Shown here: piece after piece, positions 4,326 to 40,840 of the stretch
Numbering within the stretch: position 1 is the first letter of the stretch
Layout of the letters: every line of letters begins with the position of its first letter
Assembly: GCA_949825025.1 (NCBI GenBank)
Contig: OX463778.1
Location: 30,077,969 to 30,141,968, forward strand
Source: Siphlonurus alternatus
Lineage: Eukaryota > Arthropoda > Insecta > Ephemeroptera > Siphlonuridae
Direction of reading: 5' to 3'
Length of the DNA stretch: 64,000 nucleotides
The notes under the pieces: model-generated
What the model was told of the DNA's origin: nothing
The model's input: the letters and a program-made list of their open reading frames with translations, nothing else
Database searches by the model: none
Position numbers and translations under genes: made by a program

Positions 4326-4455
4326 AAAATTGTATTCGATCTGATTGATTTAAAAAAATAAGAATTTCTAAAATTATAATATATATACATAATATTTTTT
4401 CCAGTCACGAAAAAAAAAAGTTTTATAAAACATAACATTATATTTTATAAAATAA

Positions 4456-11092: not shown

Positions 11093-11121
11093 CCCAGTGA
11101 CCACATGGACGTCCCCGGGAC
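11093..11121 (+). repeat. Left terminal inverted repeat of the giant element
   Basis: Starts CCCAGTGACCACATGGAC and ends CCGGGAC. Pairs with 37683-37710. Confidence 0.75.
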
Positions 11122-12273
11122 GCCCCGGGGACATCCCTCTAAGGTCCCCATTGGACGTCCCCAAGGACATCCCCCATGTCTATCAAAAAAGGACGTCCCT
11201 GCGGACGTCCTGTGGACATCCCTCGGGGATGTTCCCTAATTTTCACTTGCCAATTATATATTAATGCATCTTAAAATTTATATTAAAGAAGTTTAGGGTC
11301 TTTTAGAATGAGGACTACAAAATTACCATATAAAAAATTTGGATCCATCGGGAATCGAACCCAGACCTTTTGGTTGATAGACGACGTCGTAGACAACTTG
11401 GATATTGCTCTTCGTTACTAATGTGTGGTTTATTTGGGTATATAAATTGTAAAGTTTTGCGTGTTGTATAATATTTTTATATTACGAGCGAAGTTGCGTT
11501 TTTTTATTTTTTTAAGCAAACTGGTACATTGGGAGATTGTTATTATTTAATACAACATTAAAGATATTGAGATTTAAATTTTTTAAAAATAAATGAAAAT
11601 AAAATTTTATAATTTTAATAAAGGACATTAATTAATTACAAATTGCAACGCTCAAATGCATCTCTAATTGTTAACAAACTTCGACATTAAAAAAAAAATA
11701 TTTTTAATTTTTTAGAATTTTTTAATGGTTCCTCCGAGGACATTTGTGGGACGTTCAAGGGTCCCTCTAAAATCCCCGGGGGACTTTGATGGGACCTTGT
11801 TTATTTTTCATATATATTTTTTTCTACGAGGATATTTTATTAAAAAAAATTATTTTTCAGTACAAATTACGCACTTTAATATTAAGTAAAATTTCCCGTC
11901 TTATTTTAAATATTAATATTTTTTTATATAATACTTTAAATAATATTAATTATATTTGTATATTTTTAAAATCAGTACATAATATTGAACAGCACATATT
12001 ATGATTTTAATGAAAACATTGAATAAAGGGTCTTTTCAAAGTCCCCCGGGGATGTTCAAGGGACATGCCGTGTTGCATCCCCAGGGGATGTTCTGAGAGA
12101 CTTTCATAAAAATATTAAAAAACTCAGAAATATATTTTCGAAGTGTAGCTAAAACCTTTTTTAGAACATGGAAAACATATATGTTTAAAGTTAAAGGGTT
12201 TCGAAAACTAGCACGTAAAACGTTCAGGGATGTTGTGGGATCTTGCGGGGATGTTCGCAAGGTCCCCGGGATG
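11122..12273. repeat. Left subterminal region with dispersed GGACRTCCC motifs
   Basis: Two clusters (11122-11240 and 11730-12273) of variants of GGACGTCC, GGGATGTTC and CCCCGGGG are separated by AT-rich sequence. They lie between the outer and inner inverted repeats, so the left terminus is about 1.15 kb longer than the right. Subterminal motif clusters of this kind bind transposase in several DNA transposon families; that role is inference here. Short open frames across it are not supported. Confidence 0.55.
11339..11425 (-). pseudogene. tRNA-derived sequence
   Basis: Read on the minus strand it ends GGGTTCGATTCCCGATGGATCC, which contains a perfect pol III B box (GGTTCGATTCC) in a T-arm-like hairpin, preceded by an AGGTC variable-loop-like segment. 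The 5' half does not fold into clear D and anticodon arms. It is a tRNA pseudogene or tRNA-derived SINE head. Confidence 0.4.
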
Positions 12274-12314
12274 ACCGGACTGAAGATATCCACATCCACA
12301 TCCTCATCCACACT
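12274..12314 (+). repeat. Inner 41-bp inverted repeat, left copy
   Basis: Begins ACCGGACTGAAG and ends CATCCACACT. It matches the complement of 37644-37684 with one mismatch. Confidence 0.75.
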
Positions 12315-12564
12315 AGTGAAATGCAGGAAAGCAACATTAAAAAATATCACTAAATTTAGGGACAAACCAGAAGTTATCATCATCCACACTAGTGAAATGC
12401 AGGAAAGTAACTTTAAAAATGATAGAAAGAATAAAAATAAAAATTAGAAACATTTTATAATGAGATTAAATATATGACTTTTTGTCCCGCGCCCAGCGCT
12501 GATCCCAAATACGAATTTTTTTTATAAATATATAATATAGCTAGTTTTCATTGACATAATTATT

Positions 12565-15500
12565 ACAACACCATATATCAAATTTAGATTGATCAACCAG
12601 TAATTACACCGTAAAAAAAATAATGTGCATCCTCCTATTAAAACCATATATAAGTTTGATTTTTTTTACCGCCAATTCCAAATTGGAATTTCGTTCAAAA
12701 TTTAAATATAGGGTATAATTAGAATTTTACACAACATATATCAAATTTAGATTGATCAACCAGTAATTACACCGTAAAAAAATTCTTTGATTCCTTTTGT
12801 ATGCAGAACCAAAGTTTAATATTTTTTTTTCCCGCCAATTCCAAATAGGAATCTCGTTCAAAATTAAAATGTAGGGTTTAATTAGTATTTTACACAACAT
12901 ATATAAAATTTAGATAGATCAACCAGTAATTACGCCGTAAAAAAAATAATGTGCATAATTTCCTATTAAAACCAAAAGTTTGAATTTTTTTCCCGCCAAT
13001 TCCAAATAGGAATTTCGTTCGAAATTAAAATATAGGGTTTAAATAGTATTTTACACAACATATATAAAATTTAGATAGATCAACCAGTAATTACGCCGAA
13101 AAAAAAATAATGTGCATAATTTCCTATTAAAACCATAAGTTTGAATTTTTTCCCGCCAATTCCAAATAGGAATTTCGTTCAAAATTAAAATATAGGTTTT
13201 AATTAGTATTTTACACAACATATATAAAATTTAGATAGATCAACCAGTAATTACGCCGTAAAAAAAATAATGTGCATAATTTCCTATTAAAACCATAAGT
13301 TTGAATTTTTTTCCCGCCAATTCCAAATAGGAATTTCGTTCAAAATTAAAATATAAGTTTGAATTAGTATTTTACACAACATATATAAAATTTAGATAGA
13401 TCAAACAGTAATTACGCCGTAAAAAAAATAATGAGCATAATTTCCTATTAAAACCATAAGTTTGAATTTTTTTCCCGCCAATTCCAAATAGGAATTTCGT
13501 TCAAAATTAAAATGTAGGGTTTAATTAGTATTTTACACAACATATATAAAATTTAGATAGATCAAACAGTAATTACGCCGTAAAAAAAATAATGAGCATA
13601 ATTTCCTATTAAAACCATAAGTTTGAATTTTTTTCCCGCCAATTCCAAATAGGAATTTCGTTCAAAATTAAAATGTAGGGTTTAATTAGTATTTTACACA
13701 ACATATATAAAATTTAGATAGATCAACCAGTAATTACGCCGTAAAAAAAAATAATGTGCATAATTTCCTATTAAAACCAAAAGTTTGAATTTTTTTCCCG
13801 CCAATTCCAAATAGGAATTTCGTTCAAAATTAAAATGTATGGTTTAATTAGTATTTTACACAACATATATAAAATTTAGATAGATCAACCAGTAATTACG
13901 CCAAAAAAAAATAATGTGCATAATTTTCTATTAAAACCATAAGTTTGAATTTTTTTCCCGCCAATTCCAAATAGGAATTTCGTTCAAAATTAAAATGTAG
14001 GGTTTAATTAGTATTTTACACAACATATATAAAATTTAGATAGATCAACCAGTAATTACGCCGTAAAAAAAAATAATGTGCATAATTTCCTATTAAAACC
14101 AAAAGTTTGAATTTTTTTCCCGCCAATTCCAAATAGGAATTTCGTTCAAAATTAAAATATAGGTTTTAATTAGTATTTTACACAACATATATAAAATTTA
14201 GATAGATCAACCAGTAATTACGCCGTAAAAAAAATAATGTGCATAATTTCCTATTAAAACCATAAGTTTGAATTTTTTTCCCGCCAATTCCAAATAGGAA
14301 TTTCGTTCAAAATTAAAATATAAGTTTGAATTAGTATTTTACACAACATATATAAAATTTAGATAGATCAAACAGTAATTACGCCGTAAAAAAAATAATG
14401 AGCATAATTTCCTATTAAAACCATAAGTTTGAATTTTTTTCCCGCCAATTCCAAATAGGAATTTCGTTCAAAATTAAAATGTAGGGTTTAATTAGTATTT
14501 TACACAACATATATAAAATTTAGATAGATCAACCAGTAATTACACCGTAAAAAAAATAATATGTGCATAATTTCCTATTAAAACCAAAAGTTTGAATTTT
14601 TTTCCCGCCAATTCCAAATAGGAATTTCGTTCAAAATTAAAATGTATGGTTTAATTAGTATTTTACACAACATATATAAAATTTAGATAGATCAACCAGT
14701 AATTACGCCAAAAAAAAATAATGTGCATAATTTTCTATTAAAACCATAAGTTTGAATTTTTTTCCCGCCAATTCCAAATAGGAATTTCGTTCAAAATTAA
14801 AATATAGGGTTAAATTAGTATTTAACACAACATATATAAAATTTAGATAGATCAACCAGTAATTACAGCGTAAAAAAAATAATGTGCATAATTTCCTATT
14901 AAAACCAAAAGTTTGAATTTTTTTCCCGCCAATTCCAAATAGGAATTTCGTTCAAATTTAAAATATAGGGTTTAAATAGTATTTTACACAACATATATAA
15001 AATTTAGATAGATCAACCAGTAATTACGCCGAAAAAAAAATAATGTGCATAATTTCCTATTAAAACCATAAGTTTGAATTTTTTTCCCGCCAATTCCAAA
15101 TAGGAATTTCGTTCAAAATTAAAATGTAGGTTTTAATTAGTATTTTACACAAGATATATAAAATTTAGATAGATCAACCAGTAATTACGCCGTAAAAAAA
15201 ATAATGTGCATAATTTCCTATTAAGGTAGAGATAATATGTATCAGCTGGACCAATGCTAAAAAAATCCCATTCATAAAAATTATGAAAAAAATTTTAAAA
15301 TGTTCTCCTCTACATCCCCTATCAGTAGGTAAAAAATCAGGTATACAAAAACGAGCTAGTTTTCGAGTAATTAATTTTTAAAGTTCTCTAATTTAACATG
15401 GAAAAATGGAACTTCCATGTTAAATTAGTCAACTTTAAAAATTAATAACTCGAAAACTAGCTCGTTTTTGTATACCTGATATTTTACCTCCTGATAGGGG

Positions 15501-18500
15501 ATGTTGAGGAGAACATTTTAAATTTTTTTCATAATTTTTATGAATGGGATTTTTTTAGCATTGGGCCAGCTGATACATATTATCTCTACCTTAAAACCAT
15601 AAGTTTTAATTTTTTTCCCGCCAATTCCAAATAGGAATTTCGTTCAAAATTAAAATATAGGGTTTAAATAGTATTTACACAACATATATAAAATTTAGAT
15701 AGATCAACCAGTAATTACGCCGTAAAAAAAAATAATGTGCATAATTTCCTATATAGGGTTTAAATAGTATTTTACACAACATATACAAAATTTAGATAGA
15801 TCAACCCGTAATTACACCGTAAAAAAAATACTGTAACTCATTTCCAATTAACACCAAAAGTTTGAATTTTTTTCCGCCAATTCCAAAAAGGAATTTCGTT
15901 CAAAATTAAAATATAGGGTTTTATTAGTATTTTACAAAACATATATAAAATTTAGATAGATCAATCAGTAATTACACCGTAAAAAAAAATAATGTGCTTA
16001 ATTTCTTATTAAAACCATAAGTTTGAATTTTTTCCGCCAATTCCAAATAGGAATTTCGTTCAAAATTAAAATATAGGTTTTAATTAGTATTTTACACAAC
16101 ATATATAAAATTTAGATAGATCAACCAGTAATTACGCCGTAAAAAAAATAATGTGCATAATTTCCTATTAAAGCCATAAGTTTTAATTTTTTTCCCGCCA
16201 ATTCCAATATGAATTTCGTTCAAAATTAAAATGTATGGTTTAATTAGTATTTTACACAACATATATAAAATTAAGATAGAACAACCAGTAATTACGCCGT
16301 AAAAAAAAATGTGCATAATTTTTCCTATTAAAACCATAAGTTTGAATTTTTTTCCCGCTAATTCCAAATAGGAATTTCGTTCAAAATTAAAATGTAGGGT
16401 TCAATTAGTATTTTACACAATATATATAAAATTTAGATAGATCAACCAGTAATTACGCCGTAAAAAAAAATAATGTGCATAATTTCCTATTAAAACCATA
16501 AGTTTGAATTTTTTCCCGCCAATTCCAAATAGGAATTTCGTTCAAAATTAAAACATAGGGTTTAAATAGTATTTTACACAACATATATAAAATTTAGATA
16601 GATCAACCAGTAATTACGCCGTAAAAAAAAATAACGTGCATAATTTTCTATTTAAACCATAAGTTTGAATTTTTTTCCCGCCAATTCCAAATAGGAATTT
16701 CGTTCAAAATTAAAATATAGGGTTTAAATAGTATTTTACACAACATATATAAAATTTAGATAGATCAACCAGTAATTACGCCGTAAAAAAAATAATGTGC
16801 ATAATTTCCTATTAAAACCATAAGTTTGAATTTTTTTCCCGCCAATTCCAAATAGGAATTTCGTTCAAAATTAAAATGTAGGGTTTAATTAGTATTTCAC
16901 ACAACATATATAAAATTTAGATAGATCAACCAGTAATTACGCCGTAAAAAAAAATAACGTGCATAATTTTCTATTAAAACCATAAGTTTGAATTTTTTTC
17001 CCGCCAATTCCAAATAGGAATTTCGTTCAAAATTAAAATGTAGGGTTTAATTAGTATTTTACACAACATATATAAAATTAAGATAGATCAACCAGTAATT
17101 ACGCCGAAAAAAAAATAATGTGCATAATTTCCTATTAAAACCATAAGTTTGAATTTTTTTCCCGCCAATTTCAAATAGGAATTTCGTTCAAAATTAAAAT
17201 GTTGGTTTTAATTAGTATTTTACACAACATATATAAAATTTAGATAGATCAACCAGTAATTACGCCGTAAAAAAAATAATGTGCATAATTTCCTATTAAA
17301 ACCATAAGTTTTAATTTTTTTCCCGCCAATTCCAAATATGAATTTCGTTCAAAATTAAAATTTAGGGTTTAATTAGTATTTTACACAACATATATAAAAT
17401 TTAGATAGAACAACCAGTAATTACGCCGTAAAAAAAATAACGTGCATAATTTTCTATTTAAACCATAAGTTTGAATTTTTTTCCCGCCAATTCCAAATAG
17501 GAATTTCGTTCAAAATTAAAATATAGGGTTTAAATAGTATTTTACACAACATATATAAAATTTAGATAGATCAACCAGTAATTACGCCGTAAAAAAAATA
17601 ATGTGCATAATTTCCTATTAAAACCATAAGTTTGAATTTTTTTCCCGCCAATTCCAAATAGGAATTTCGTTCAAAATTAAAATGTAGGGTTTAATTAGTA
17701 TTTTACACAACATATATAAAATTTAGATAGATCAACCAGTAATTACGCCGTAAAAAAAATAATGTGCATAATTTCCTATTAAAACCATAAGTTTGAATTT
17801 TTTTCACGCCAATTCCAAATAGGAATTTCGTTCAAAATTAAAATATAGGGTTTAAATAGTATTTTACACAACATATATAAAATTTAGATAGATCAACCAG
17901 TAATTACGCCGTAAAAAAAAATAACGTGCATAATTTTCTATTAAAACCATAAGTTTGAATTTTTTTCCCGCCAATTCCAAATAGGAATTTCGTTCAAAAT
18001 TAAAATGTAGGGTTTAATTAGTATTTTACACAACATATATAAAATTAAGATAGATCAACCAGTAATTACGCCGAAAAAAAAATAATGTGCATAATTTCCT
18101 ATTAAAACCATAAGTTTGAATTTTTTTCCCGCCAATTCCAAATAGGAATTTCGTTCAAAATTAAAATGTAGGTTTTAATTAGTATTTTACACAACATATA
18201 TAAAATTTAGATAGATCAACCAGTAATTACGCCGTAAAAAAAATAATGTGCATAATTTCCTATTAAAACCATAAGTTTTAATTTTTTTCCCGCCAATTCC
18301 AAATATGAATTTCGTTCAAAATTAAAATTTAGGGTTTAATTAGTATTTTACACAACATATATAAAATTTAGATAGAACAACCAGTAATTACGCCGTAAAA
18401 AAAAAAATGTGCATAATTTCCTATTAAAACCATAAGTTTGAATTTTTTTCCCGCCAATTCCAAATAGGAATTTCGTTCAAAATTAAAATATAAGTTTGAA

Positions 18501-19490
18501 TTAGTATTTTACACAACATATATAAAATTTAGATAGATCAAACAGTAATTACGCCAAAAAAAAAATAATGTGCATAATTTTCTATTAAAACCATAAGTTT
18601 GAATTTTTTTCCCGCCAATTCCAAATAGGAATTTCGTTCAAAATTAAAATGTAGGGTTTAATTAGTATTTTACACAACATATATAAAATTTAGATAGATC
18701 AACCAGTAATTACGCCGTAAAAAAAAATAATGTGCATAATTTCCTATTAAAACCATAAGTTTGAATTTTTTTCCCGCCAATTCCACATAGGAATTTCGTT
18801 CAAAATTAAAATATAGGGTTTAAATAGTATTTTACACAACATATACAAAATTTAGATAGATCAACCCGTAATTACACCGTAAAAAAAATACTGTAACTCA
18901 TTTCCAATTAACACCAAAAGTTTGAATTTTTTCCGCCAATTCCAAAAGGGAATTTCGTTCAAAATTAAAATATAGGGTTTTATTAGTATTTTACAAAACA
19001 TATATAAAATTTAGATAGATCAATCAGTAATTACACCGTAAAAAAAAATAATGTGCTTAATTTCTTATTAAAACCATAAGTTTGAATTTTTTCCGCCAAT
19101 TCCAAATAGGAATTTCGTTCAAAATTAAAATATTGGGTTTAATTAGTATTTAACACAACATATATAAAATTAAGATAGATCAACCAGTAATTACACCGTA
19201 AAAAAAATAATGTACCTCATTTCCTATTAACACCATAAGTTTGAATTTTTTTCCCGCCAATTCCAAATAGGAATTTCGTTCAAAATTAAAATATAGGGTT
19301 TAATTAGTATTTAACACAACATATATAAAATTTAGATAGATCAACCAGTAATTACACCGTAAAAAAAATAATGTGCATAATTTCCAATTAAAACCATAAG
19401 TTTGATTTTTCCCACTCAATCCCAAATAGGGATTTCGTTCAAAATTAATATTTATGGTTTCATTAGTATTTTACACAACCTATATGAAAT
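12565..19490 (+). repeat. 161-bp satellite array, forward arm
   Basis: About 40 head-to-tail copies of a 161-bp AT-rich unit with landmarks CCCGCCAATTCC, AGATAGATCAACCAG and a CGCC(G)-A run. Copies are mostly a few percent apart. Higher-order repeats are visible: variant strings recur at five-unit (about 805 bp), six-unit (about 967 bp) and 19-unit (3058 bp, 15805 against 18863) spacings. Open frames inside are artefacts. Interrupted by a palindromic MITE at 15225-15590. Confidence 0.95.
15221..15594. mobile_element. Palindromic TTAA MITE in the satellite
   Basis: A 366-bp near-perfect palindrome (starts GGTAGAGATAATATGTATCA, ends with its complement) flanked by TTAA at 15221-15224 and 15591-15594. 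Removing the element and one TTAA restores the satellite unit exactly (CCTATTAAAACC). TTAA duplication is typical of piggyBac and Kolobok-type elements. No coding capacity. Confidence 0.9.
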
Positions 19491-20119
19491 TTGACGTATT
19501 AATTGAAAATGATGTTTTAATTAAAATAATCAAATTAATTTATAAAAAATTTGCTTTAACAATTAAGTTATCAAAAATGGGTGAAAAATATATTTAATAT
19601 ATAACATTCCATGTAAAAAAAATCTCCACAATATCTAGAGAGAGATCGGCACACGCTAAAAAAAATTATTTCATTAAAGCGCACTGGTGGCCTGACATAG
19701 AGCGAAGGTCACATTTAACTCGTCTGCTTAAATCTCAAGCGAACAGGCTTAAATACAAATATTAGTGCTCGGCTCTGTTTCACCGAAGACAAGTTCCCTT
19801 CGTATTTGATATAGAAATAAGATTTTTTTTTATCTAAATTCACACCTAATTAAAGTTTATAATTTTTTAGGTTGACATTTACAACAAACAAAAACTGCTT
19901 TATGAGATTATGAATCTCATAAAGCAGTTTTATAAGAACTACAGTATAAAAGTAACAGACGCAGGAAGCAATTAAGAAAGGTCAAGTGTGAGCTGCGCTT
20001 GCTGTTTTACAACCCCGGTTATGCGAGAGAAGATGAGGGATGGTTATAAATGTAATAGATTCCAAAACAATGAAATTGTGACTCTCATAAACCGTACTAT
20101 CTATTCTTTAATTAGGAAT

Positions 20120-20189
<70 letters not shown>

Positions 20190-21023
20190 AATATATATTT
20201 ATATATATATATATGTATATATTTATTTCCCTCTTATATTCGGATCAAAAAATTTGACTGAAATTGCATGCAGTTATTGCAGTTGATTGAAATATTCAAT
20301 TCCAGTCATTTTTAAAATCCAATTGTTTCTATTATTTCTTTTCTTTTTTTTTTCCTTAAAGCAATTATTATAGAATATGAATTATTTTATAATATATATA
20401 TTTATACATATATATTCAAATACTTATATCATCTTATATACTAACATTCTTTTCGCGGTACTAGACCATGGAGAAGTGAGGGAGAGTTTGCATATTAGTA
20501 TTTATAATAATTTTTTAATCTCTAATTTATGGCGAAATTAATTTTTTTTCATGATATTCAAAACGGTATGTTGCTCTATTTCACACATAATTGTATTTTA
20601 ACATTCTTTTCATTGCTGGTCACTTTTTCACCTATTTTTGTTTTTTTTTGTTTTTTGTTTTTTTATTATAGCAAAAATTCAATTGATGGATTATTATATA
20701 AAGAAAAAGTGGTTCCGAAGATCCGGTTTCGAATCCTCTTTTAAAGGAAGCGGTTCCGTTTGGATCCGGAATCGGATTTCCACGAATTTTAGCGTTTCTT
20801 CACAGGATCCTGTTTCCGGATCCAGTTTAAATTCACTCCCTGAAATTATATATATATATATATATATATGAAATGTGTATTATTTATTAAGCAAGTTGAT
20901 TTCACATTGGAATATCTTCCAAACATTTGTTTTTCACTTTGATTTTATTCTCCTATATTCTTATCTTTAGATTCTGCCTGTTAGCACCATTACTGTGTGC
21001 TTTTAAACTAAACCGTGTTTCAG
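19491..21023. other. Left core of the giant element, mostly non-coding
   Basis: AT-rich. A plus-strand open segment at 19631-19765 (44 codons, including KAHWWPDIERRSHLTRLLKS) lies after a CTAG acceptor-like site and may be a gene fragment, but it is unrecognised and weak. A perfect hairpin lies at 19891-19931 and an (AT)n tract at about 20120-20210. A small patch rich in GGATCC/GGTTCC sits at 20710-20825. Confidence 0.4.
19891..19931. repeat. Perfect 19-bp hairpin
   Basis: Arms AAAACTGCTTTATGAGATT and its exact complement enclose a 3-nt loop (ATG). The loop is too short for a typical pre-miRNA. More likely a tiny foldback element or a cruciform-forming site. Confidence 0.85.
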
Positions 21024-21584
21024 AAGCAACCAGAAATGGTGAGCCATTCCTACCACGGCAAGGTCATAGCAGTAAAAATGGGAAGGTTTTTTTTTTTAGT
21101 TATTTTTTTATTTTATCTTATTTTTTTTTGTTTTTGTTTTTTTTTTTTTTTTTGCTTTTTTTGGTCATTTTTTTATGTTTTTCAGGAACCTATTGTCACA
21201 TATTTGCCCACATCCCAAGTTTGTTTATGTACATCCTTTTCAATTTATTTACATAAGAGATGCAACGTTAAAGCAATCTCCTATTTATAATCCGAATGCA
21301 TTTTTCTTTTTCAATAGTTATGTATATATTTCGTCAATATAAATAAAAGACACAGTAGCCAGTATGTCACAACTCCTCGAAATGAGATTAATCTTGATGA
21401 GGCAATGAATGAGATATTCACAAGGTATAGTTGCCTGGAAAAATTTTTGGATCACTTCAAGGATTTTGAAAATTATGATTTCTGGATAGGTTACCCCTAT
21501 ACCAATAGCATCATAGTTACTGAGGCAAATCACCAACGGAAGGTAGTGGCCAAATGCAACAATCTGCATTGTAAACTGTTTTGA
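21024..21584 (+). pseudogene. Decayed spliced ORF in the giant element, unrecognised
   Basis: Three segments read like protein. Exon a (21024-21085) follows GTTTCAG and gives KQPEMVSHSYHGKVIAVKMG. It joins, across a T-rich intron with a poor donor (GTTTTT), to exon b from 21186 (TTTTTCAG acceptor), with the split codon AGG then NLLSHICPHPKFVYVHPF and on to IYNPN, ending at TAA 21340-21342. A second frame from 21318 to TGA at 21582-21584 (88 codons) continues with RHSSQYVTTPRNEINLDEAM and YDFWIGYPYTN. The switch of frame near 21318-21340 implies a frameshift or a missed junction. Could be part of the transposase of the ancestor, or captured host coding sequence. Confidence 0.4.
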
Positions 21585-21914
21585 AGTTCCCCACAACGTT
21601 AGATTACGCTTATCCTATTGTTTACTGATGTAGTCACCACCCGCTTCCTCCTTACTACTGTTCCTCAGAGACGGCAGTACCATCACCTATCCAGAGGTTA
21701 AATACAAAATACTTGAATCATTTTTTTTCATTTTTAATAAAAAAAATCATGTGCTAGAACTAACAGTAATTTTCTACGTTCCATTACTTTTAAAAATATT
21801 TAAGTACAAAGTTAAAAAATTATTCATTTACAATAGAGTTACATTGTAAATTTGGGTTCTCAAAACTTCAACTATCAGTATGTATTTGCAATGTAAATAA
21901 ATTCTACAGTGTAT

Positions 21915-23390: not shown

Positions 23391-23426
23391 TTACAAATAT
23401 ATATATATATTATATATATATATATA

Positions 23427-26400: not shown

Positions 26401-26591
26401 GCCCATAAGGTTTTGATAAAGAACGGGAACGCACCCCCCAGAAGGGGTGAAATAAGGGTGGGAAAAAATTTTCACTGCCAGAACACAAAACAAAGGACCC
26501 TCTACTATTACTGTACGAAATTTGAAGTTTCTACGAGCACTTTTGCAATTCCATTTTACGAGTTACATTTGGGACACGAATTGTGGTACAC

Positions 26592-26597
<6 letters not shown>
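23427..26597. mobile_element. Nested foldback element, 3.17 kb, TA-flanked
   Basis: Ends CAG(T/A)GTGT(T/A)CCACAATTCG and complement, in a TA setting (23427-23428 and 26596-26597) next to (AT)n tracts. TA targeting and the terminal motif recall Tc1/mariner-type MITEs. Each arm has tandem units of about 140 bp with landmarks TGCCTCTATGGGTT and GACCCTTGACC: left arm 23429-24900, right arm 25440-26595 in reverse. The middle (24900-25440) shows no transposase. Open frames in the arms are mirror images of repeats. Confidence 0.8.

Positions 26598-26656
<59 letters not shown>
26598..26656. repeat. (AT)n microsatellite
   Basis: Alternating TA tract bordering the nested foldback element. Confidence 0.9.
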
Positions 26657-26660
<4 letters not shown>

Positions 26661-27718
26661 TATGTATAACATGTAAATGAAGGTGATATTACTCATTCAG
26701 GATCACTCCGGTTCTACCTACTTAATTTAAAAGGTTAAAAAAGGAAATAAGGGCGTGTATAAGGCAAGTATTAATAATATTTATAACAAGAAAAAGAAAG
26801 CGTCATTCATAGGAAAAACTGGTCTGTAAATACGGGATCACGAAATAGAGTTTCTGAAAACAACATGTTCATTCTGCGCACTACATTTTTTTTTTTTAAA
26901 AAAAGTGAAATCAGAATATAAAAAATGGGTCATGAGTTACTTTTTTTCCAGACGCGTTCTAGCCAATCTTAATGACTTGGTGCAAGCTCATAACGTTACA
27001 TATAATTTTTATATATATTTATAGGCTAATAATATCATATAGATCATTTCGGAATTTTTCCATGTGATAATACGGGCAAAAATTTAATTTCTTTGTGTCT
27101 TTCATTTATTTTTAGAGACATAAATAAATATTTAATAAATTATTTATATATATGTGTTGGTGAGTGGGTATTCAATTTTAATTGCAAAAAGGTCTACACA
27201 GAAAAACGAATAAAAATGATAAAGTAATTTGTTAAGTATCACAAAAATTTTAAAAGAAAAAGAATAAACTTTCTTAATAATTCTCACTGTTTTATGATAT
27301 AAATTATTCTGCCATATACATCCACCTTGTTTCTAAAAAACAATTTTTAAAAACAGTTAAACCACTTTGGATGATGTCGGGAGGAGTTCCAAAAAAAAAC
27401 ATTCTGCTTTATAGATGGTTTTATCTCTCTGATTGCTATTTGTCAGTCTTGTGGCATGATCAATTATTTATTTTCCTTTTTGGTGGGGTTCTGCATGAAG
27501 GGCAATAAAAATCTTCAGATGCTGGGATAAGGTCGATTTAAATACGTTTCAAATGGAACTTTTGATTGCATTGTCGATCCTTTGCATCTATATTTTATTG
27601 CATCAGGATCATTGCATTTAGTTCCTAATGATCATAGCACCTTCCCATGTTATGAAGGAAAAACTCAGCTAACGCAACAAAATATGAAATCGTTCTCTTG
27701 TATGGAGCAGGTGCAGTT
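26657..27718. other. Right core of the giant element, non-coding or decayed
   Basis: AT-rich. Just downstream (minus strand) of the protease relic, 27600-27718 still reads protein-like in another frame (HETAPAPYKRTISYFVALAE), suggesting the protease gene once ran further and is frameshifted. Nothing else supported. Confidence 0.4.
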
Positions 27719-28203
27719 TCATGTATAAGATTTGTTATACGTTGCATATATTTTTGTTGATGCATTAATGACTGCATTCTGCATTCTCGCTACATGTGTT
27801 GCAAATTCTATACACACTTCCCTGCTAACTTGTGCCTGGAGAAGTTCATGCATAATCCAACGTCTTGCATGCTTCATGTCTGCGTGGTTAAATCTAAGAT
27901 TCGAGCCAGAGCAAATAATATGACTCCAAATCACCACATGAATTCCACAATCAACGCTTGATCCTTGCTGAACGATGTCTTTGGGGAAATAAATTTTCCA
28001 ATCTCTTTTCCAATTGATAAGACATGAAAATATAAGAAGATGAGCATGATATAGAATTTTTTTTTACATGTTTCAGGTATTGAATTCCATGTGCTTTGTA
28101 ATTTTCTTTATCAAAGAGTGAATCAATGCATGTTATGTATTTATTTTGAATATCAACAACAAAAAGAATCCAGTGACCCCCATTTGCATTAACAGGAATT
28201 ATA
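27719..28203 (-). pseudogene. Ulp1/SENP-like C48 cysteine protease, truncated and frameshifted
   Basis: Reading the minus strand from 28203, an open segment gives IIPVNANGGHWILFVVDIQN and then TCIDSLFDKENY. After a 9-nt T run (28057-28065 on plus) the frame changes and continues through DWKIYFPKDIVQQGSS then VDCGIHVVIWSHIICSG to TAG at 27719. His (GHW), Asp 17 residues on (IDSL), Gln and, six after it, Cys (DCG) match the spacing of the Ulp1/SENP catalytic residues (His, Asp, Gln, Cys). Such enzymes cleave SUMO or related tags; in DNA transposons they are accessory domains of large proteins. The N-terminal part is missing: the satellite array begins at 28204 in place of further coding sequence. 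The frame change and truncation make it non-functional as read, unless an intron spans the A run. Confidence 0.75.
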
Positions 28204-31200
28204 CCCTACATTTCAATTTTGAACGAAATCCCTATATGGGATTGGCGGGAAAATTTTTTTAAACTTATGGTTTTAATAGGAAATTATGCACATTATTTTT
28301 TTTACGGTGTAATTACTGGTTGATCTATCTTAATTTTATATATGTTGTGTAAAATACTAATAAAACCCTATATTTTAATTTTGAATGAAATTCCTATTTG
28401 GAATTGGCGGGAAAAAATTTAAACTTATGGTTTTAATAGGAAATTATGTACATTACTTTTTTACGGTGTAATTACTGGTTGATCTATCTAAATTTTATAT
28501 ATGTTGTGTTAAATCTAATTTAAACCCTACATTTCAATTTTGAACGAAATCCCTATATGGGATTGGCGGGAAAATTTTTTTAAACTTATGGTTTTAATAG
28601 GAAATTATGCACATTATTTTTTTTACGGTGTAATTACTGGTTGATCTATCTTAATTTTATATATGTTGTGTAAAATACTAATAAAACCCTATATTTTAAT
28701 TTTGAATGAAATTCCTATTTGGAATTGGCGGGAAAAAATTTAAACTTATGGTTTTAATAGGAAATTATGTACATTACTTTTTTACGGTGTAATTACTGGT
28801 TGATCTATCTAAATTTTATATATGTTGTGTTAAATCTAATTTAAACCCTATATTTTAATTTTGAACGAAATTCCTATTTGGAATTGGCAGGAAAAAAATT
28901 TTAAACTTATGGTTTTAATAGGAAATTATGCACAATATTTTTTTTACGGTGTAATTACTGGTTGATCTATCTAAATTTTATATATGTTGTGTTAAATCCA
29001 AATTAAACCCTATATTTTAATTTTGAACGAAATTCCTATTTGGAATTGGCGGGAAAAAAATTTTAAACTTATGGTTTACATAGGAAATTATGCACAATAT
29101 TTTTTTACGGTGTAATTACTGGTTGATCTATCTAAATTTTATATATGTTGTGTTAAATCCAAATTAAACCCTATATTTTAATTTTGAACGAAATTCCTAT
29201 TTGGAATTGGCGGGAAAAAAATTTAAACTTATGGTTTTAATAGGAAATTATGTACATTACTTTTTTACGGTGTAATGACTGGTTGATCTATCTAAATTTT
29301 ATATATGTTGTGTTAAATCCTAATTAAACCCTATATTTTAATTTTGAACGAAATTCCTATTTGGAATTGGCGGGAAAAAAATTTAAACTTTTGGTGTTAA
29401 TTGGAAATGAGGCACATTATTTTTTTTTACGGTGTAATTACTGGTTGATCTATCTAAATTTCATATATGTTGTGTTAAATCTAATTTAAACCCTATATTT
29501 TAATTTTAAACGAAATTCCTATTTGGAATTGGCAGGAAAAAAATTTTAAACTTATGGTTTTAATAGGAAATTATGCACAATATTTTTTTTACGGTGTAAT
29601 TACTGGTTGATCTATCTAAATTTTATATATGTTGTGTTAAATCCAAATTAAACCCTATATTTTAATTTTGAACGAAATTCCTATTTGGAATTGGCGGGAA
29701 AAAAATTTTAAACTTATGGTTTTAATAGGAAATTATGCACATTATTTTTTTTACGGTGTAATTACTGGTTGATCTATCTAAATTTTATATATGTTGTGTT
29801 AAATCCAAATTAAACCCTATATTTTAATTTTGAACGAAATTCCTATTTGGAATTGGCGGGAAAAAAATTTTAAACTTATGGTTTACATAGGAAATTATGC
29901 ACAATATTTTTTTACGGTGTAATTACTGGTTGATCTATCTAAATTTTATATATGTTGTGTTAAATCCTAATTAAACCCTATGTTTTAATTTTGAACGAAA
30001 TTCCTATTTGGAATTGGCGGGAAAAAAATTTAAACTTATGGTTTTAATAGGAAATTATGTACATTACTTTTTTACGGTGTAATTACTGGTTGATCTATCT
30101 AAATTTTATATATGTTGTGTTAAATCCTAATTAAACCCTATATTTTAATTTTGAACGAAATTCCTATTTGGAATTGGCGGGAAAAAAATTTAAACTTTTG
30201 GTGTTAATTGGAAATGAGGCACATTATTTTTTTTTACGGTGTAATTACTGGTTGATCTATCTAAATTTTATATATGTTGTGTAAAATACTAATTAAAACC
30301 TACATTTTAATTTTGAACGAAATTCCTATTTGGAATTGGCGGGAAAAAAATTTTAAACTTATGGTTTACATAGGAAATTATGCACAATATTTTTTTACGG
30401 TGTAATTACTGGTTGATCTATCTAAATTTTATATATGTTGTGTTAAATCCAAATTAAACCCTATATTTTAATTTTGAACGAAATTCCTATTTGGAATTGG
30501 CGGGAAAAAAATTTTAAACTTATGGTTTTAATAGGAAATTATGCACATTATTTTTTTACGGTGTAATTACTGGTTGATCTATCTAAATTTTATATATGTT
30601 GTGTTAAATCCTAATTCAACCCTATGTTTTAATTTTGAACGAAATTCCTATTTGGAATTGGCGGGAAAAAAATTTTAAACTTATGGTTTACATAGGAAAT
30701 TATGCACAATATTTTTTTACGGTGTAATTACTGGTTGATCTATCTAAATTTTATATATGTTGTGTTAAATCCAAATTAAACCCTATATTTTAATTTTGAA
30801 CGAAATTCCTATTTGGAATTGGCGGGAAAAAAATTTTAAACTTATGGTTTTAATTGGAAATTATGCACATTATTTTTTTTTAGGTGTAATTACTGGTTGA
30901 TCTATCTAAATTTTATATATGTTGTGTTAAATCCCAATTAAACCCTATATTTTAATTTTGAACGAAATTCCTATTTGGAATTGGCGGGAAAAAAATTTTA
31001 AACTTATGGTTTACATAGGAAATTATGCACAATATTTTTTTACGGTGTAATTACTGGTTGATCTATCTAAATTTTATATATGTTGTGTTAAATCCAAATT
31101 AAACCCTATATTTTAATTTTGAACGAAATTCCTATTTGGAATTGGCGGGAAAAAAATTTAAACTAATGGTTTTAATAGGAAATTATGCACAATATTTTTT

Positions 31201-34200
31201 TTTACGGTGTAATTACTGGTTGATCTATCTAAATTTTATATATGTTGTGTTAAATCTAATTTAAACCCTATATTTTAATTTTGAACGAAATTCCTATTTG
31301 GAATTGGCAGGAAAAAAATTTTGAACTTATGGTTTTAATAGGAAATTATGCACAATATTTTTTTTACGGTGTAATTACTGGTTGATCTATCTAAATTTTA
31401 TATATGTTGTGTTAAATCCAAATTAAACCCTATATTTTAATTTGGAACGAAATTCCTATTTGGAATTGGCGGGAAAAAAAAATTAAACTAATGGTTTTAA
31501 TAGGAAATTATGCACATTATTTTTTTTACGGTGTAATTACTGGTTGATCTATCTAAATTTTATATATGTTGTGTTAAATCCTAATTAAACCCTATATTTT
31601 AATTTTGAACGAAATTCCTATTTGGAATTGGCGGGAAAAAAATTTAAACTTATGGTTTTAATAGAAAATTATGTACATTATTTTTTTAACGGTGTAATTA
31701 CTGGTTGATCTATCTACATTTTATATATATTGTGTAAAATACTAATAAAACCCTATATTTTAATTTTGAACGAAATTCCTATTTGGAATTGGCGGGAAAA
31801 AATTTTTAAACTTATGGTTTTAATAGGAAATTATGCACAATATTTTTTTACGGTGTAATTACTGGTTGATCTATCTAAATTTTATATATGTTGTGTTAAA
31901 TCCCAATTAAACCCTATATTTTAATTTTGAACGAAATTCCTATTTGGAATTGGCGGGAAAAAATTTTTAAACTTATGGTTTACATAGGAAATTATGCACA
32001 AAATTTTTTTACGGTGTAATTACTGGTTGATCTATCTAAATTTTATATATGTTGTGTTAAATCCTAATTAAACCCTATATTTTAATTTTGAACGAAATTC
32101 CTATTTGGAATTGGCGGGAAAAAAATTTAAACTTTTGGTGTTAATTGGAAATGAGGCACATTATTTTTTTTTACGGTGTAATTACTGGTTGATCTATCTA
32201 AATTTTATATATGTTGTGTTAAATCTAATTTAAACCCTATATTTTAATTTTGAACGAAATTCCTATTTGGAATTGGCAGGAAAAAAATTTTGAACTTATG
32301 GTTTTAATAGGAAATTATGCACAATATTTTTTTTACGGTGTAATTACTGGTTGATCTATCTAAATTTTATATATGTTGTGTTAAATCCAAATTAAACCCT
32401 GTATTTTAATTTGGAACGAAATTCCTATTTGGAATTGGCGGGAAAAAAAAATTAAACTAATGGTTTTAATAGGAAATTATGCACATTATTTTTTTTACGG
32501 TGTAATTACTGGTTGATCTATCTAAATTTTATATATGTTGTGTTAAATCCTAATTAAACCCTATATTTTAATTTTGAACGAAATTCCTATTTGGAATTGG
32601 CGGGAAAAAAATTTAAACTTATGGTTTTAATAGAAAATTATGTACATTATTTTTTTAACGGTGTAATTACTGGTTGATCTATCTACATTTTATATATATT
32701 GTGTAAAATACTAATAAAACCCTATATTTTAATTTTGAACGAAATTCCTATTTGGAATTGGCGGGAAAAAATTTTTAAACTTATGGTTTTAATAGGAAAT
32801 TATGCACAATATTTTTTTACGGTGTAATTACTGGTTGATCTATCTAAATTTTATATATGTTGTGTTAAATCCAAATTAAACCCTATATTTTAATTTTGAA
32901 CGAAATTCCTATTTGGAATTGGCGGGAAAAAAATTTAAACTAATGGTTTTAATAGGAAATTATGCACAATATTTTTTTTACGGTGTAATTACTGGTTGAT
33001 CTATCTAAATTTTATATATGTTGTGTTAAATCTAAATTAAACCCTATATTTTAATTTTGAACGAAATACCTATTTGGAATTGGCGGGAAAAAAATTTAAA
33101 CTTATGGTTTTAATAGGAAATTATGCACATTATTTTTTTTACGGTGTAATTACTGGTTGATCTATCTAAATTTTATATATGTTGTGTCAAATCCTAATTA
33201 AACCCTATGTTTTAATTTTGAACGAAATTCCTATTTGGAATTGGCGGGAAAAAAATTTAAACTAATGGTTTTAATAGGAAATTATGTACATTACTTTTTT
33301 ACGGTGTAATTACTGGTTGATCTATCTATATTTTATATATGTTGTGTTAAATCCTAATTAAACCCTATATTTTAATTTTGAACGAAATTCCTATTTGGAA
33401 TTGGCGGGAAAAAAATTTAAACTTTTGGTGTTAATTGGAAATGAGGCACATTATTTTTTTTTACGGTGTAATTACTGGTTGATCTATCTAAATTTTATAT
33501 ACGTTGTGTAAAATACTAATTTAAACCTACATTTTAATTTTGAACGAAATTCCTATTTGGAATTGGCGGGAAAAAAATTTTAAACTTATGGTTTACATAG
33601 GAAATTATGCACAATATTTTTTTACGGTGTAATTACTTGTTGATCTATCTAAATTTTATATATGTTGTGTTAAATCCAAATTAAACCCTATATTTTAATT
33701 TTGAACGAAATTCCTATTTGGAATTGGCGGGAAATTTTTTTTAAACTTATGGTTTTAATAGGAAATTATGCACATTATTTTTTTTTAGGTGTAATTACTG
33801 GTTGATCTATCTAAATTTTATATATGTTGTGTTAAATCCTAATTAAACCCTATATTTTAATTTTGAACGAAATTCCTATTTGGAATTGGCGGGAAAAAAA
33901 TTTTAAACTTATGGTTTACATAGGAAATTATGCACAATATTTTTTTACGGTGTAATTACTGGTTGATCTATCTAAATTTTATATATGTTGTGTTAAATCC
34001 AAATTAAACCCTATATTTTAATTTTGAACGAAATTCCTATTTGGAATTGGCGGGAAAAAAATTTTAAACTTATGGTTTTAATAGGAAATTATGCACATTA
34101 TTTTTTTTTAGATGTAATTACTGGTTGATCTATCTAAATTTTATATATGTTGTGTTAAATCCTAATTAAACCCTATATTTTAATTTTGAACGAAATTCCT

Positions 34201-37200
34201 ATTTGGAATTGGCGGGAAAAAAATTTAAACTTTTGGTGTTAATTGGAAATGAGGCACATTATTTTTTTTTACGGTGTAATTACTGGTTGATCTATCTAAA
34301 TTTTATATATGCTGTGTTAAATCTAATTTAAACCCTATATTTTAATTTTGAACGAAACTCCTATTTGGAATTGGCAGGAAAAAAATTTTAAACTTATGGT
34401 TTTAATAGGAAATTATGCACAATATTTTTTTTGCGGTGTAATTACTGGTTGATCTATCTAAATTTTATATATGTTGTGTTAAATCCAAATTAAACCCTAT
34501 ATTTTAATTTTGAACGAAATTCCTATTTGGAATTGGCGGGAAAAAAAATTAAACTAATGGTTTTAATAGGAAATTATGCACATTATTTTTTTTACGGTGT
34601 AATTACTGGTTGATCTATCTAAATTTTATATATGTTGTGTTAAATTCTAATCAAACCCTATATTTTAATTTTGAACGAAATTCCTATTTGGAATTGGCGG
34701 GAAAAAAATTTAAACTTATGGTTTTAATAGAAAATTATGTACATTATTTTTTTAACGGTGTAATTACTGGTTGATCTATCTAAATTTTATATATGTTGTG
34801 TAAAATACTAATAAAACCCTATATTTTAATTCTGAACGAAATTCCTATTTGGAATTGGCGGGAAAAAATTTTTAAACTTATGGTTTTAATAGGAAATTAT
34901 GCACAATATTTTTTTACGGTGTAATTACTGGTTGATCTATCTAAATTTTATATATGTTGTGTTAAATCCAAATTAAACCCTATATTTTAATTTTGAACGA
35001 AATTCCTATTTGGAATTGGCGGGAAAAAAATTTAAACTAATGGTTTTAATAGGAAATTATGCACATTATTTTTTTTACGGTGTAATTACTGGTTGATCTA
35101 TCTAAATTTTATATATGTTGTGTTAAATCCTAATTAAACCCTATATTTTAATTTTGAACGAAATTCCTATTTGGAATTGGCGGGAAAAAAATTTAAAATT
35201 ATGGTTTTAATAGAAAATTATGAACATTATTTTTTTAACGGTGTAATTACTGGTTGATCTATCTAAATTTTATATATGTTGTGTAAAATACTAATAAAAC
35301 CCTATATTTTAATTTTGAACGAAATTCCTATTTGAAATTGGCGGGAAAATAATTTTAAACTTATGGTTTTAATAGGAAATTATGTACATTATTTTTTTTA
35401 CGGTGTAATTACTGGTTGATCTATCTAAATTTTATATATGTTGTGTTAAATACTAATTCAAACTTATATTTTAATTTTGAACGAAATTCCTATTTGGAAT
35501 TGGCGGGAAAAAAAATTAAACTAATGGTTTTAATAGGAAATTATGCACATTATTTTTTTTACGGTGTAATTACTGGTTGATCTATCTAAATTTTATATAT
35601 GTTGTGTTAAATTCTAATCAAACCCTATATTTTAATTTTGAACGAAATTCCTATTTGGAATTGGCGGGAAAAAAATTTTAAACTTATGGTTTTAATAGGA
35701 AATTATGCACATTATTTTTTTTTAGATGTAATTACTGGTTGATCTATCTAAATTTTATATATGTTGTGTTAAATCCTAATTAAACCCTATATTTTAATTT
35801 TGAACGAAATTCCTATTTGGAATTGGCGGGAAAAAAATTTAAACTTTTGGTGTTAATTGGAAATGAGGCACATTATTTTTTTTTACGGTGTAATTACTGG
35901 TTGATCTATCTAAATTTTATATATGCTGTGTTAAATCTAATTTAAACCCTATATTTTAATTTTGAACGAAACTCCTATTTGGAATTGGCAGGAAAAAAAT
36001 TTTAAACTTATGGTTTTAATAGGAAATTATGCACAATATTTTTTTTGCGGTGTAATTACTGGTTGATCTATCTAAATTTTATATATGTTGTGTTAAATCC
36101 AAATTAAACCCTATATTTTAATTTTGAACGAAATTCCTATTTGGAATTGGCGGGAAAAAAAATTAAACTAATGGTTTTAATAGGAAATTATGCACATTAT
36201 TTTTTTTACGGTGTAATTACTGGTTGATCTATCTAAATTTTATATATGTTGTGTTAAATTCTAATCAAACCCTATATTTTAATTTTGAACGAAATTCCTA
36301 TTTGGAATTGGCGGGAAAAAAATTTAAACTTATGGTTTTAATAGAAAATTATGTACATTATTTTTTTAACGGTGTAATTACTGGTTGATCTATCTAAATT
36401 TTATATATGTTGTGTAAAATACTAATAAAACCCTATATTTTAATTCTGAACGAAATTCCTATTTGGAATTGGCGGGAAAAAATTTTTAAACTTATGGTTT
36501 TAATAGGAAATTATGCACAATATTTTTTTACGGTGTAATTACTGGTTGATCTATCTAAATTTTATATATGTTGTGTTAAATCCAAATTAAACCCTATATT
36601 TTAATTTTGAACGAAATTCCTATTTGGAATTGGCGGGAAAAAAATTTAAACTAATGGTTTTAATAGGAAATTATGCACATTATTTTTTTTACGGTGTAAT
36701 TACTGGTTGATCTATCTAAATTTTATATATGTTGTGTTAAATCCTAATTAAACCCTATATTTTAATTTTGAACGAAATTCCTATTTGGAATTGGCGGGAA
36801 AAAAATTTAAAATTATGGTTTTAATAGAAAATTATGAACATTATTTTTTTAACGGTGTAATTACTGGTTGATCTATCTAAATTTTATATATGTTGTGTAA
36901 AATACTAATAAAACCCTATATTTTAATTTTGAACGAAATTCCTATTTGAAATTGGCGGGAAAATAATTTTAAACTTATGGTTTTAATAGGAAATTATGTA
37001 CATTATTTTTTTTACGGTGTAATTACTGGTTGATCTATCTAAATTTTATATATGTTGTGTTAAATACTAATTCAAACTTATATTTTAATTTTGAACGAAA
37101 TTCCTATTTGGAATTGGCGGGAAAAAAATTTAAACTTATGGTTTTAATAGGAAATTATGTACATTATTTTTTTTACGGTGTAATTACTGGTTGATCTATC

Positions 37201-37290
37201 TAAATTTTATATATGTTGTGTTAAATACTAATTAAACCCTATATTTTAATTTTGAACGAAATTCCTATTTGGAATTGGCGGGAAAAAAAT
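28204..37290 (-). repeat. 161-bp satellite array, reverse arm
   Basis: About 56 copies of the same 161-bp unit as 12565-19490, in the opposite orientation (landmark GGAATTGGCGGG). Higher-order structure: a two-unit block repeats at 28204/28528, a six-unit block near 31322/32291, and a ten-unit block of about 1.62 kb near 34225/35845. It starts directly against the protease relic. Confidence 0.95.
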
Positions 37291-37643
37291 TCAAACCTTT
37301 GATCTTTATAAAAATTGTTGCAAATTATATATTTTCCAGTGTAATTACTGGATGCCCCATTTGAAATTATTGTATGTCGTTCAAAATAGGCCTGGGACCA
37401 TTTCATATTAATTTAAAAGAAAATCGAAGAAAAATTTAATCAGGAATGGCGGGATAATTAAAATATTAACTTTGCATGGTGTTCCATTAGAAATTTTGCA
37501 AAGTGTTTTTTGCGAAGATTTATCATTGTACTAAGTTATTAGAGCGATGTCCTTCTAATATCTTCTTATTTAACACAAGAAAGCTTATTGTTCATCTCCT
37601 TAATGTTTATATAGGGATTTTTTGTTTTACATGTTGGTACTGC
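37291..37643. other. Right subterminal region of the giant element
   Basis: AT-rich, no gene. It opens with decayed satellite sequence (to about 37350) and leads into the inner inverted repeat. The long plus frame starting at 37503 crosses from here into the GC-rich unit and is not a gene. Confidence 0.5.
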
Positions 37644-37684
37644 AGTGTGGATGAGGATGTGGATGTGGATAACTTCAGTCCGGT
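37644..37684 (-). repeat. Inner 41-bp inverted repeat, right copy
   Basis: Complement of 12274-12314 with one mismatch. It runs directly into the outer terminal repeat here, whereas about 1.15 kb separates the two on the left. Confidence 0.75.
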
Positions 37685-37710
37685 CCCGGGATGTCCATGT
37701 GGTCACTGGG
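37683..37710 (-). repeat. Right terminal inverted repeat of the giant element
   Basis: Ends CATGTGGTCACTGGG, the complement of the left end at 11093-11121. Confidence 0.75.
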
Positions 37711-39904: not shown

Positions 39905-39990
39905 TGACGTCATGAAACATAAAGCAAGACAATAATGACATGATCAAATATTACGTCGACATGACGTCATGACTTTTGTATGTGACGTCA
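39905..39990. promoter_or_regulatory. Three perfect cAMP-response elements in the LTR
   Basis: TGACGTCA at 39905-39912, 39962-39969 and 39983-39990, the exact CREB/ATF palindrome. They lie about 100-180 bp upstream of the TATA-like motif at 40088, as in an LTR U3 enhancer. Confidence 0.5.
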
Positions 39991-40810: not shown

Positions 40811-40840
40811 TTGTTACGGTCCGAAATAAACCGTAACAAG
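40811..40840 (+). terminator. Poly(A)-signal hairpin at the LTR 3' end
   Basis: CTTGTTACGG pairs perfectly with CCGTAACAAG around a loop containing AATAAA. The right arm overlaps the LTR end and target duplication. Confidence 0.5.

What the first reader, a model, noticed from the sequence alone, without database searches (positions are those of the whole stretch)
11093..37710. A 26.6-kb satellite-armed giant insertion with inverted ends in a single repeat unit
Seen: the GC-rich unit breaks at 11092 and resumes at 37711 with no loss. Ends are inverted (CCCAGTGACCACATGGAC...), a second 41-bp inverted pair lies inside, and about 7 kb and 9 kb of one 161-bp satellite face each other around a core with gene relics. 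Known: foldback transposons carry repeat-rich inverted arms, but arms made of a long satellite with higher-order structure, plus a protease relic, are not a form I recognise. Inference: a new giant, probably non-autonomous DNA transposon lineage, or an inversion-built satellite island mobilised as a unit.
Basis: partly seen in the sequence, partly recalled or inferred. Interest (0 to 1): 0.88.

Follow-up and report, generated by a model that had tools for sequence, protein, structure and literature searches.

The report
Giant transposon with inverted satellite arms
A 25-kb jumping DNA element, found as about two dozen pairs of facing ends in this genome, carries two long arrays of one 161-base satellite repeat as its inverted arms, so this satellite is likely spread through the genome by transposition.

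Summary
The outer inverted ends (CCCAGTGACC...) belong to an abundant 1.2-kb miniature transposon with a 2-bp duplication. Inside it sits the giant, 12274-37684 (25,411 bp), with 41-bp inverted ends and a perfect 9-bp duplication (CCCGGGATG).

The window's own genome (455.7 Mb) holds 23 facing pairs of these ends, 0.56-45 kb apart (median 18.2 kb). Of 19 pairs with both flanks seen, 14 have an exact 9-bp duplication and 3 more 8 of 9 or 7 bp; two rearranged neighbours have none. The best of 306 mismatched controls is 6 of 9. The 161-bp satellite follows the right end in 19 of 20 loci read. The 100 listed (of 126) sites of a satellite word lie in paired elements (90) or beside an unpaired family end (10).

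So the satellite is this transposon family's own arms. It resembles Rehavkus/foldback elements of the Mutator group (Rehavkus-1_TC has 164-bp repeats in inverted termini) but is larger, with kilobases of satellite per arm and a broken Ulp1 protease gene cut at the satellite edge. No transposase was found: membership is unproven and trans-mobilisation is inferred.

The parts
12274..37684 (+). giant satellite-armed transposon, 25,411 bp, ends ACCGGACTGAAG...CTTCAGTCCGGT
   Evidence: exact right end from 20 loci with different outside sequence; 9-bp duplication
12274..12314 (+). left terminal inverted repeat (41 bp, A-type at place 13)
37644..37684 (-). right terminal inverted repeat (41 bp, T-type at place 13)
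12265..12273 (.). left copy of 9-bp target duplication CCCGGGATG
   Evidence: single and uninterrupted in the other miniature elements
37685..37693 (.). right copy of 9-bp target duplication CCCGGGATG
12563..19492 (+). left satellite arm, 161-bp monomers (41 anchors), interrupted near 15220-15605 by a dispersed repeat
28197..37351 (-). right satellite arm, same 161-bp monomer inverted (57 anchors), with an internal duplication of about ten monomers
19493..28196 (.). core between the arms; parts of it are shared by other copies in the same orientation
27722..28205 (-). broken Ulp1/SENP-type cysteine protease (Peptidase_C48), two frames, cut at the satellite edge
   Evidence: (weak); fuller copy in L059
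21318..21581 (+). 88-codon open piece of unknown function, near full length in 18 family places and partial in 5; its last ~35-40 codons resemble a dispersed repeat
23435..26589 (.). separate nested foldback element, arms about 1.16 kb at 89%, 140-bp tandem repeats, beside TA microsatellites
   Evidence: length arithmetic against shorter copies
22390..22853 (.). separate nested hairpin element (near-perfect palindrome), TTAA on both sides
11093..12273 (+). left 1181 bp of the host miniature transposon (intact length about 1.2 kb), CG before it
37694..37710 (+). last 17 bp of the host miniature transposon, CG after it

Best explanation
The finding is a 25.4-kb DNA transposon (12274-37684) that carries its own 161-bp satellite as two inverted arms and sits inside a 1.2-kb miniature transposon within one unit of a GC-rich array; it likely lacks a working transposase and is predicted to be moved in trans by a Mutator/Rehavkus-type enzyme. 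Shown: precise ends, a 9-bp target duplication, an uninterrupted target in sister miniature elements, 23 facing end pairs in the genome, satellite inside 19 of the 20 right ends read, and the listed satellite sites all in or beside family elements. Inferred: transposition is cut-and-paste with a 9-bp stagger; the arrays grow and shrink in place by unequal exchange or replication slippage; growth or deletion at the array edge removed the 5' part of the Ulp1 gene in several copies; and each jump installs two ready-made satellite blocks facing each other at a new site.
For: Ends: 54 matches to the 35-base end pattern, 0 for the control; with the 12-base end (69 matches, control 8) 23 facing pairs, median 18.2 kb. 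Target duplications: of 19 pairs with both flanks seen, 14 exact 9/9, one 8/9, two with a 7-bp direct repeat (by eye), two none; off-pair control best 6/9 in 306 in-register comparisons. Empty target: the 9-bp site is uninterrupted in 20 of 20 miniature-element copies read, exact in 19. Satellite directly inside the right end in 19 of 20 loci (window included; the best 20 of 43 matches), over the whole 1.5 kb read in 16. Satellite word: 100 of 126 sites listed; 90 inside pairs, 10 beside an unpaired family end; 87 of the 90 face inward by a midpoint split, the other 3 are in an arm that passes the midpoint. Two further words: 100 listed of 1266 (all on C1) and 16 of 16, in or beside family elements. 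Core pieces shared. Core-to-right-end distance varies 2.7-13.2 kb in 14 copies. A copy on C11 (L059, L060) has 1.2 kb of non-satellite, partly open-frame DNA where the window has satellite. Young copy C1:46.08 Mb: 100% over 1491 bp of core and 286 bp of right end.
Against: No transposase found: Pfam scans of six frames of the core gave none, and 0 of 28 PF10551 (MULE) hits in the genome lie inside a listed element (compared by eye). Two pairs have no target duplication, C1:6698516-6714990 and C1:6695806-6696363. 11 of the 54 end matches have no partner. One of 20 right ends has no satellite behind it (L038). Most copy interiors were placed by search coordinates, not read, because letters from the genome were rationed. 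Two pairs (C11:4933634 and C11:45587236) rest on a 12-base end, for which the control shows some chance matches; 18 of the 90 satellite sites lie in the first of them.
Confidence: 0.88

Rival explanations
1. The satellite is a general genomic satellite that independently invaded, or was captured by, many copies of an ordinary transposon, so arms are cargo and not part of the mobile unit.
For: Left and right arms are separately homogenised (8.6% between against about 6.4% within), and in the C11 copy the satellite edge lies about 1.2 kb away from its place in the window (L059, L060).
Against: 19 of 20 right ends lead into the satellite in line with the window copy; all listed satellite sites (100, 100 and 16 in three searches) lie in or beside family elements.
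Confidence: 0.06
2. An inversion-built satellite island moved by segmental duplication or ectopic recombination rather than transposition.
For: Some copies are rearranged: the C1:6695806-6714990 cluster, unpaired halves on C1 and C9, inverted pieces at C11:4.96 and 5.06-5.08 Mb.
Against: Different outside sequence at 20 right ends, exact 9-bp duplications in 14 of 19 pairs, clean target in sister miniature elements.
Confidence: 0.03
3. One single 26.6-kb transposon from 11093 to 37710.
For: The CCCAGTGACC ends are inverted and flanked by CG.
Against: 11093-12273 occurs alone as a ~1.2-kb element with its own far end GGTCACTGGG and 2-bp duplications in 18 of 19 copies with an intact right end; the giant's right end recurs at other sites without it.
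Confidence: 0.01
4. Same anatomy, but moved by a transposase outside the Mutator group that also makes duplications of about 8-9 bp (hAT, P or Merlin relatives; recalled).
For: No transposase was seen in the element, and duplication length alone is only a clue.
Against: 9 bp dominates (14 exact of 19), and Rehavkus, Tm1 and Tetris combine 9-bp (8-10) duplications with tandem-repeat ends.
Confidence: 0.12

Closest known systems
Rehavkus (Mutator-related; Rehavkus-1_TC of Tribolium castaneum, Repbase; PMC10218199 and PMC6446971, passages read)
   Same: 9-bp target duplication; terminal inverted repeats; in Rehavkus-1_TC a tandem repeat of almost the same length (164 against 161 bp) in the inverted termini
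   Different: Rehavkus-1_TC is 9.5 kb with arrays of mostly 5 and 8 monomers; here the median is 18 kb, up to 45 kb, with 41 and 57 monomer anchors in the window copy; a broken Ulp1 gene and no transposase seen; the PHD-finger transposase listed for Rehavkus was not found
Tetris (foldback, Drosophila virilis; PMC4079207, passages and section 10)
   Same: non-autonomous, 8-10-bp duplications, ~220-bp tandem repeats inside inverted arms, array number varies between copies
   Different: arms up to 1,735 bp; its repeats also occur outside the element, whereas here no free array was among the listed sites
Tm1 Mutator/Foldback (root-knot nematodes; PMC3169594, passages)
   Same: composite ends with variable numbers of tandem repeats, 9-bp duplications, mostly non-autonomous
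   Different: elements of about 1-2.5 kb in the passages, 13-15-bp repeats, FLYWCH-MULE transposase known
Galileo and Drosophila Foldback elements (PMC3688188, start of abstract in a listing; rest recalled)
   Same: unusually long, internally repetitive inverted ends
   Different: [quoted passage not shown] the Pfam scans of the core showed no transposase of any kind
Satellite-carrying Helitrons/Helentrons (PMC7492417, title and start of abstract in a listing)
   Same: satellite-like arrays dispersed by a mobile element
   Different: no inverted ends or target duplication in Helitrons (recalled); here both are present

Membership tests
Mutator (MULE) superfamily | about 9-bp target site duplication | tested here: met
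   14 of 19 pairs exact, control best 6/9
Mutator (MULE) superfamily | MULE-type DDE transposase in the family | tested here: inconclusive
   none in the window core; 0 of 28 PF10551 hits inside listed elements; other copies' interiors mostly unread
Rehavkus | 9-bp duplication with 26-400-bp inverted ends | tested here: met
   41-bp ends; definition from PMC6446971
Rehavkus | mini/satellite repeats by the termini | tested here: met
   161-bp arrays next to right ends in 19 of 20; both orientations seen in 11 of 16 elements with listed sites
Rehavkus | transposase with PHD finger | tested here: inconclusive
   no such domain by Pfam in the window core or in L059/L060; an autonomous copy was not found
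Foldback elements | long inverted arms built of tandem repeats | tested here: met
Helitron | no terminal inverted repeats, no target duplication (recalled) | tested here: not met
   41-bp inverted ends and 9-bp duplications
Ulp1/SENP C48 peptidase (core gene) | Pfam PF02902 above cut-off, with His and Cys motifs (motifs recalled) | tested here: met
   31.6 and 21.4 bits against cut-off 20.7; GHW and DCG visible; 60 bits in L059

The most novel reading that the evidence does not exclude
This satellite family exists only as a transposon organ: kilobases-long satellite arrays are built inside a giant Rehavkus-like element, overrun its own genes, and are planted whole, as facing pairs, at new sites, making satellite seeding a transposition event rather than an accident of recombination.
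Probability: 0.6. Interest if true: 0.75.

Novelty: new variant of a known kind. Interest (0 to 1): 0.62.

Why it matters
How satellite arrays reach new places, and why some come as inverted pairs, is an old question. Here one genome holds about two dozen facing end pairs, most of those tested with clean target duplications, that carry this satellite, so array birth, growth and shrinkage could be followed copy by copy. It also stretches the size range: complete arthropod MULEs in a survey of 4268 genomes are 1.4-10.0 kb (PMC13359780, abstract and passages), against a median of 18 kb here. Long inverted arms at many sites are also likely rearrangement hot spots, as the broken copies suggest.

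Tried and rejected
Rfam scan of the window for RNA families, ribosomal RNA among them: nothing, so the array's identity stays open. Protein searches with one Ulp1 piece and the 88-codon piece against the large protein set: no homologue. Pattern scans: satellite in viral contigs and genome contigs, outer end and array unit in viral contigs, 0 matches each. The idea that the outer block on the right was lost by recombination was dropped once the miniature element was found. The idea that C1:46081877 and C9:4676215 are one split element was rejected: their flanks match at 2 of 9. Autonomous partner by the shared 12-base end near MULE hits: none by eye. The coding stretch in L060 was sought genome-wide: only itself.
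Full report
WHAT IS THERE. The window interrupts a GC-rich tandem array (unit about 1344 bp) at 11092/37711. Seven other units read straight through the same spot, and the interrupted one carries CG on both sides. Inside are two inverted end pairs, two facing arrays of one 161-bp satellite, and a core with a broken gene.

TWO NESTED ELEMENTS, NOT ONE. A search of the window's own genome (G000, 455.7 Mb, 102 contigs; window = C1:30077969-30141968) with 11093-11400 gave 40 scored matches of 259 candidates, at 96-100%, the window included. Twenty copies were read over 10 kb each (L009-L028): all align to 11093-12276, three with interruptions (L012, L023, L025), and then leave the window sequence; further on only scattered simple or dispersed repeats match. 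The stand-alone element is about 1.2 kb in 17 of the 20, ends ...CCCGGGATGTCCATGTGGTCACTGGG, and has a 2-bp target duplication, counted by eye, in 18 of the 19 with an intact right end (L024 differs; L028 has a damaged end). In the window it is split: 1181 bp on the left (11093-12273) and 17 bp on the right (37694-37710). CCCGGGATG, single in the other copies (one base different in L026), stands on both sides of the giant. So a miniature element landed in the array unit, and the giant landed in the miniature element.

THE GIANT ELEMENT. Its ends are ACCGGACTGAAG at 12274 and CTTCAGTCCGGT at 37684; after the final GGT the 20 right-end loci (L029-L048, the window among them) have different DNA. 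These are the best 20 of 43 matches to the right 311 bp. The 41-bp ends differ at place 13 (A left, T right). A 35-base end pattern with up to 3 mismatches hits the genome 54 times, its reversed control 0 times; the first 12 bases alone hit 69 times, control 8. Pairing ends that face each other gives 23 pairs: 21 from the long pattern and two (C11:4933634-4973466 and C11:45587236-45602603) whose left end rests on 12 bases. Lengths run from 558 bp to 45,071 bp, median 18,229. Of the 54 long-pattern matches 43 are in these pairs and 11 are unpaired, for example C1:34209748, C1:46081877, C6:26903442, C9:4676215, C11:5083556 and C11:25186556.

TARGET DUPLICATIONS. Both flanks were seen for 19 pairs including the window. 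Fourteen have identical 9-bp flanks; C3:27019013 has 8 of 9; C3:9451127 and C3:47793730 have a 7-bp direct repeat at the ends (read by eye; the control does not cover shifted matches). Two have none: C1:6698516-6714990 (1 of 9) and its neighbour C1:6695806-6696363 (3 of 9 by eye), whose flanks match crosswise (GGTTTCTTT). Among 306 wrong pairings of the flanks of 18 pairs the best in-register match is 6 of 9. This is the mark of transposition with a 9-bp stagger.

THE SATELLITE IS PART OF THE ELEMENT. Of 20 right-end loci, 16 continue through the whole 1.5 kb read into window-like satellite at 94-100%, three more (L041, L046, L047) do so for a shorter stretch, and one (L038) is a deleted form without it. 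One satellite word matches 126 places; 100 were listed: 90 in paired elements (18 of them in C11:4933634-4973466), 10 beside an unpaired family end, none elsewhere. By a midpoint split 87 of the 90 face inward; the other three lie in arms that pass the midpoint but on the outer side of the core landmarks. Of 16 elements with sites, 11 show both orientations. Two other words agree: 100 listed of 1266, all on C1 and inside paired elements by eye; and 16 of 16, four of them beside unpaired ends. The list limits mean that 26 sites of the first word and 1166 of the second were not seen.

HOW THE ARMS BEHAVE. The distance from the shared core edge to the right end varies from 2.7 to 13.2 kb in 14 copies; it includes about 0.3 kb of end sequence, and two copies on C11 with a partial or different edge were left out. 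In the window the arms are homogenised separately, and a block of eight monomers recurs exactly, ten monomers away. Decayed satellite-like sequence seems, by eye, to extend beyond the outer array edges. These point to growth and loss in place, by unequal exchange or slippage (inferred).

THE CORE. The minus strand at 28205-27722 encodes pieces of a Ulp1/SENP-type protease in two frames, including the His and Cys motifs; it stops at the satellite edge. Copies L057 and L058 have satellite at that same edge. Copy C11 (L059 and L060) instead has 1.2 kb of non-satellite DNA there, partly open frame and including the front of the protease domain (60 bits), before its satellite begins. So the satellite, or a deletion at its edge, likely removed coding DNA in other copies. 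More distant Ulp1 matches at 33-42% identity with frames up to 614 codons occur elsewhere. An 88-codon piece at 21318-21581 is near full length in 18 family places, 17 of them without a stop, and partial in 5 more; its tail resembles a dispersed repeat (150 of 551 candidates scored). Two insertions sit in the window's core: a foldback with 140-bp repeats (23435-26589) and a 464-bp hairpin (22390-22853). Subtracting them leaves 1.77 kb between two core landmarks, close to 1.68-1.69 kb in two of 13 copies measured (the window is one of the 13), which likely lack them; the other ten range from 1.3 to 6.1 kb.

WHO MOVES IT. No transposase was recognised in the core and none of 28 MULE-domain hits in the genome lies in a listed element. 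Mobilisation in trans is therefore an inference. Duplication length, end length and near-160-bp repeats in inverted termini match Rehavkus, a group allied to Mutator; I commit to that at about 0.75 for the enzyme group.

WHAT IS KNOWN. [quoted passage not shown] Rehavkus is tabulated with 9-bp duplications, 26-400-bp ends, a PHD finger and a minisatellite (PMC6446971, passages). Tetris has arms up to 1,735 bp with 220-bp repeats (PMC4079207, section 10). Complete arthropod MULEs are 1.4-10.0 kb (PMC13359780, passages). [quoted passage not shown] My literature searches listed no Mutator-group element that I recognised, from titles and abstract starts, as having arms of many kilobases; the library lacks most subscription papers.

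VERDICT. Ordinary in kind, extreme in degree: a new, large, satellite-armed variant of the Rehavkus/foldback type, with unusually clear insertion evidence. The host species was not identified. After rechecking the calls one fact changed (14 exact of 19 pairs, not of 18); the odds did not.

Noticed in passing
39482-40840: A ~1.36-kb block starting TGTTAC and ending GTAACA interrupts another array unit with AGGT on both sides (read by eye); looks like a lone LTR with a 4-bp duplication.
   Followed up: no
9802-10154: A block of ACTGA-type short tandem repeats lies within one GC-rich array unit.
   Followed up: no
7230-46410: GC-rich ~1344-bp tandem array of unknown nature; no RNA family in the window by Rfam. 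A piece of the unit also lies at about 4453-4726 with 97-99% identity.
   Followed up: partly
22390-22853: Near-perfect 464-bp palindrome between TTAA and TTAA, folding far better than shuffles (z -39).
   Followed up: partly
23435-26589: Separate foldback element with 1.16-kb arms and 140-bp tandem repeats, beside TA microsatellites.
   Followed up: partly
15220-15605: A ~385-bp stretch inside the left satellite arm matches repeats in several of the fetched miniature-element loci at 75-95%.
   Followed up: no
11093-12273 and L009-L028: The host miniature transposon: about 1.2 kb, ends CCCAGTGACC, GGACGTCC-like motifs by eye, 2-bp duplication of no fixed sequence (TA, AT, TT, TG, AC, GA, CA, AA, TC seen); superfamily not identified.
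   Followed up: partly
L038 (C1:6695806-6696363) and L047 (C1:6698516): The left flank of one element (GGTTTCTTT) equals the right-end flank of the next, as if an inversion within or between elements had swapped their ends.
   Followed up: partly
C1:46081877 and C9:4676215 (L030, L070): A right half and a left half, each 100% identical to the window over the parts compared, without a partner end and with unlike flanks; recent truncated copies or assembly breaks.
   Followed up: partly
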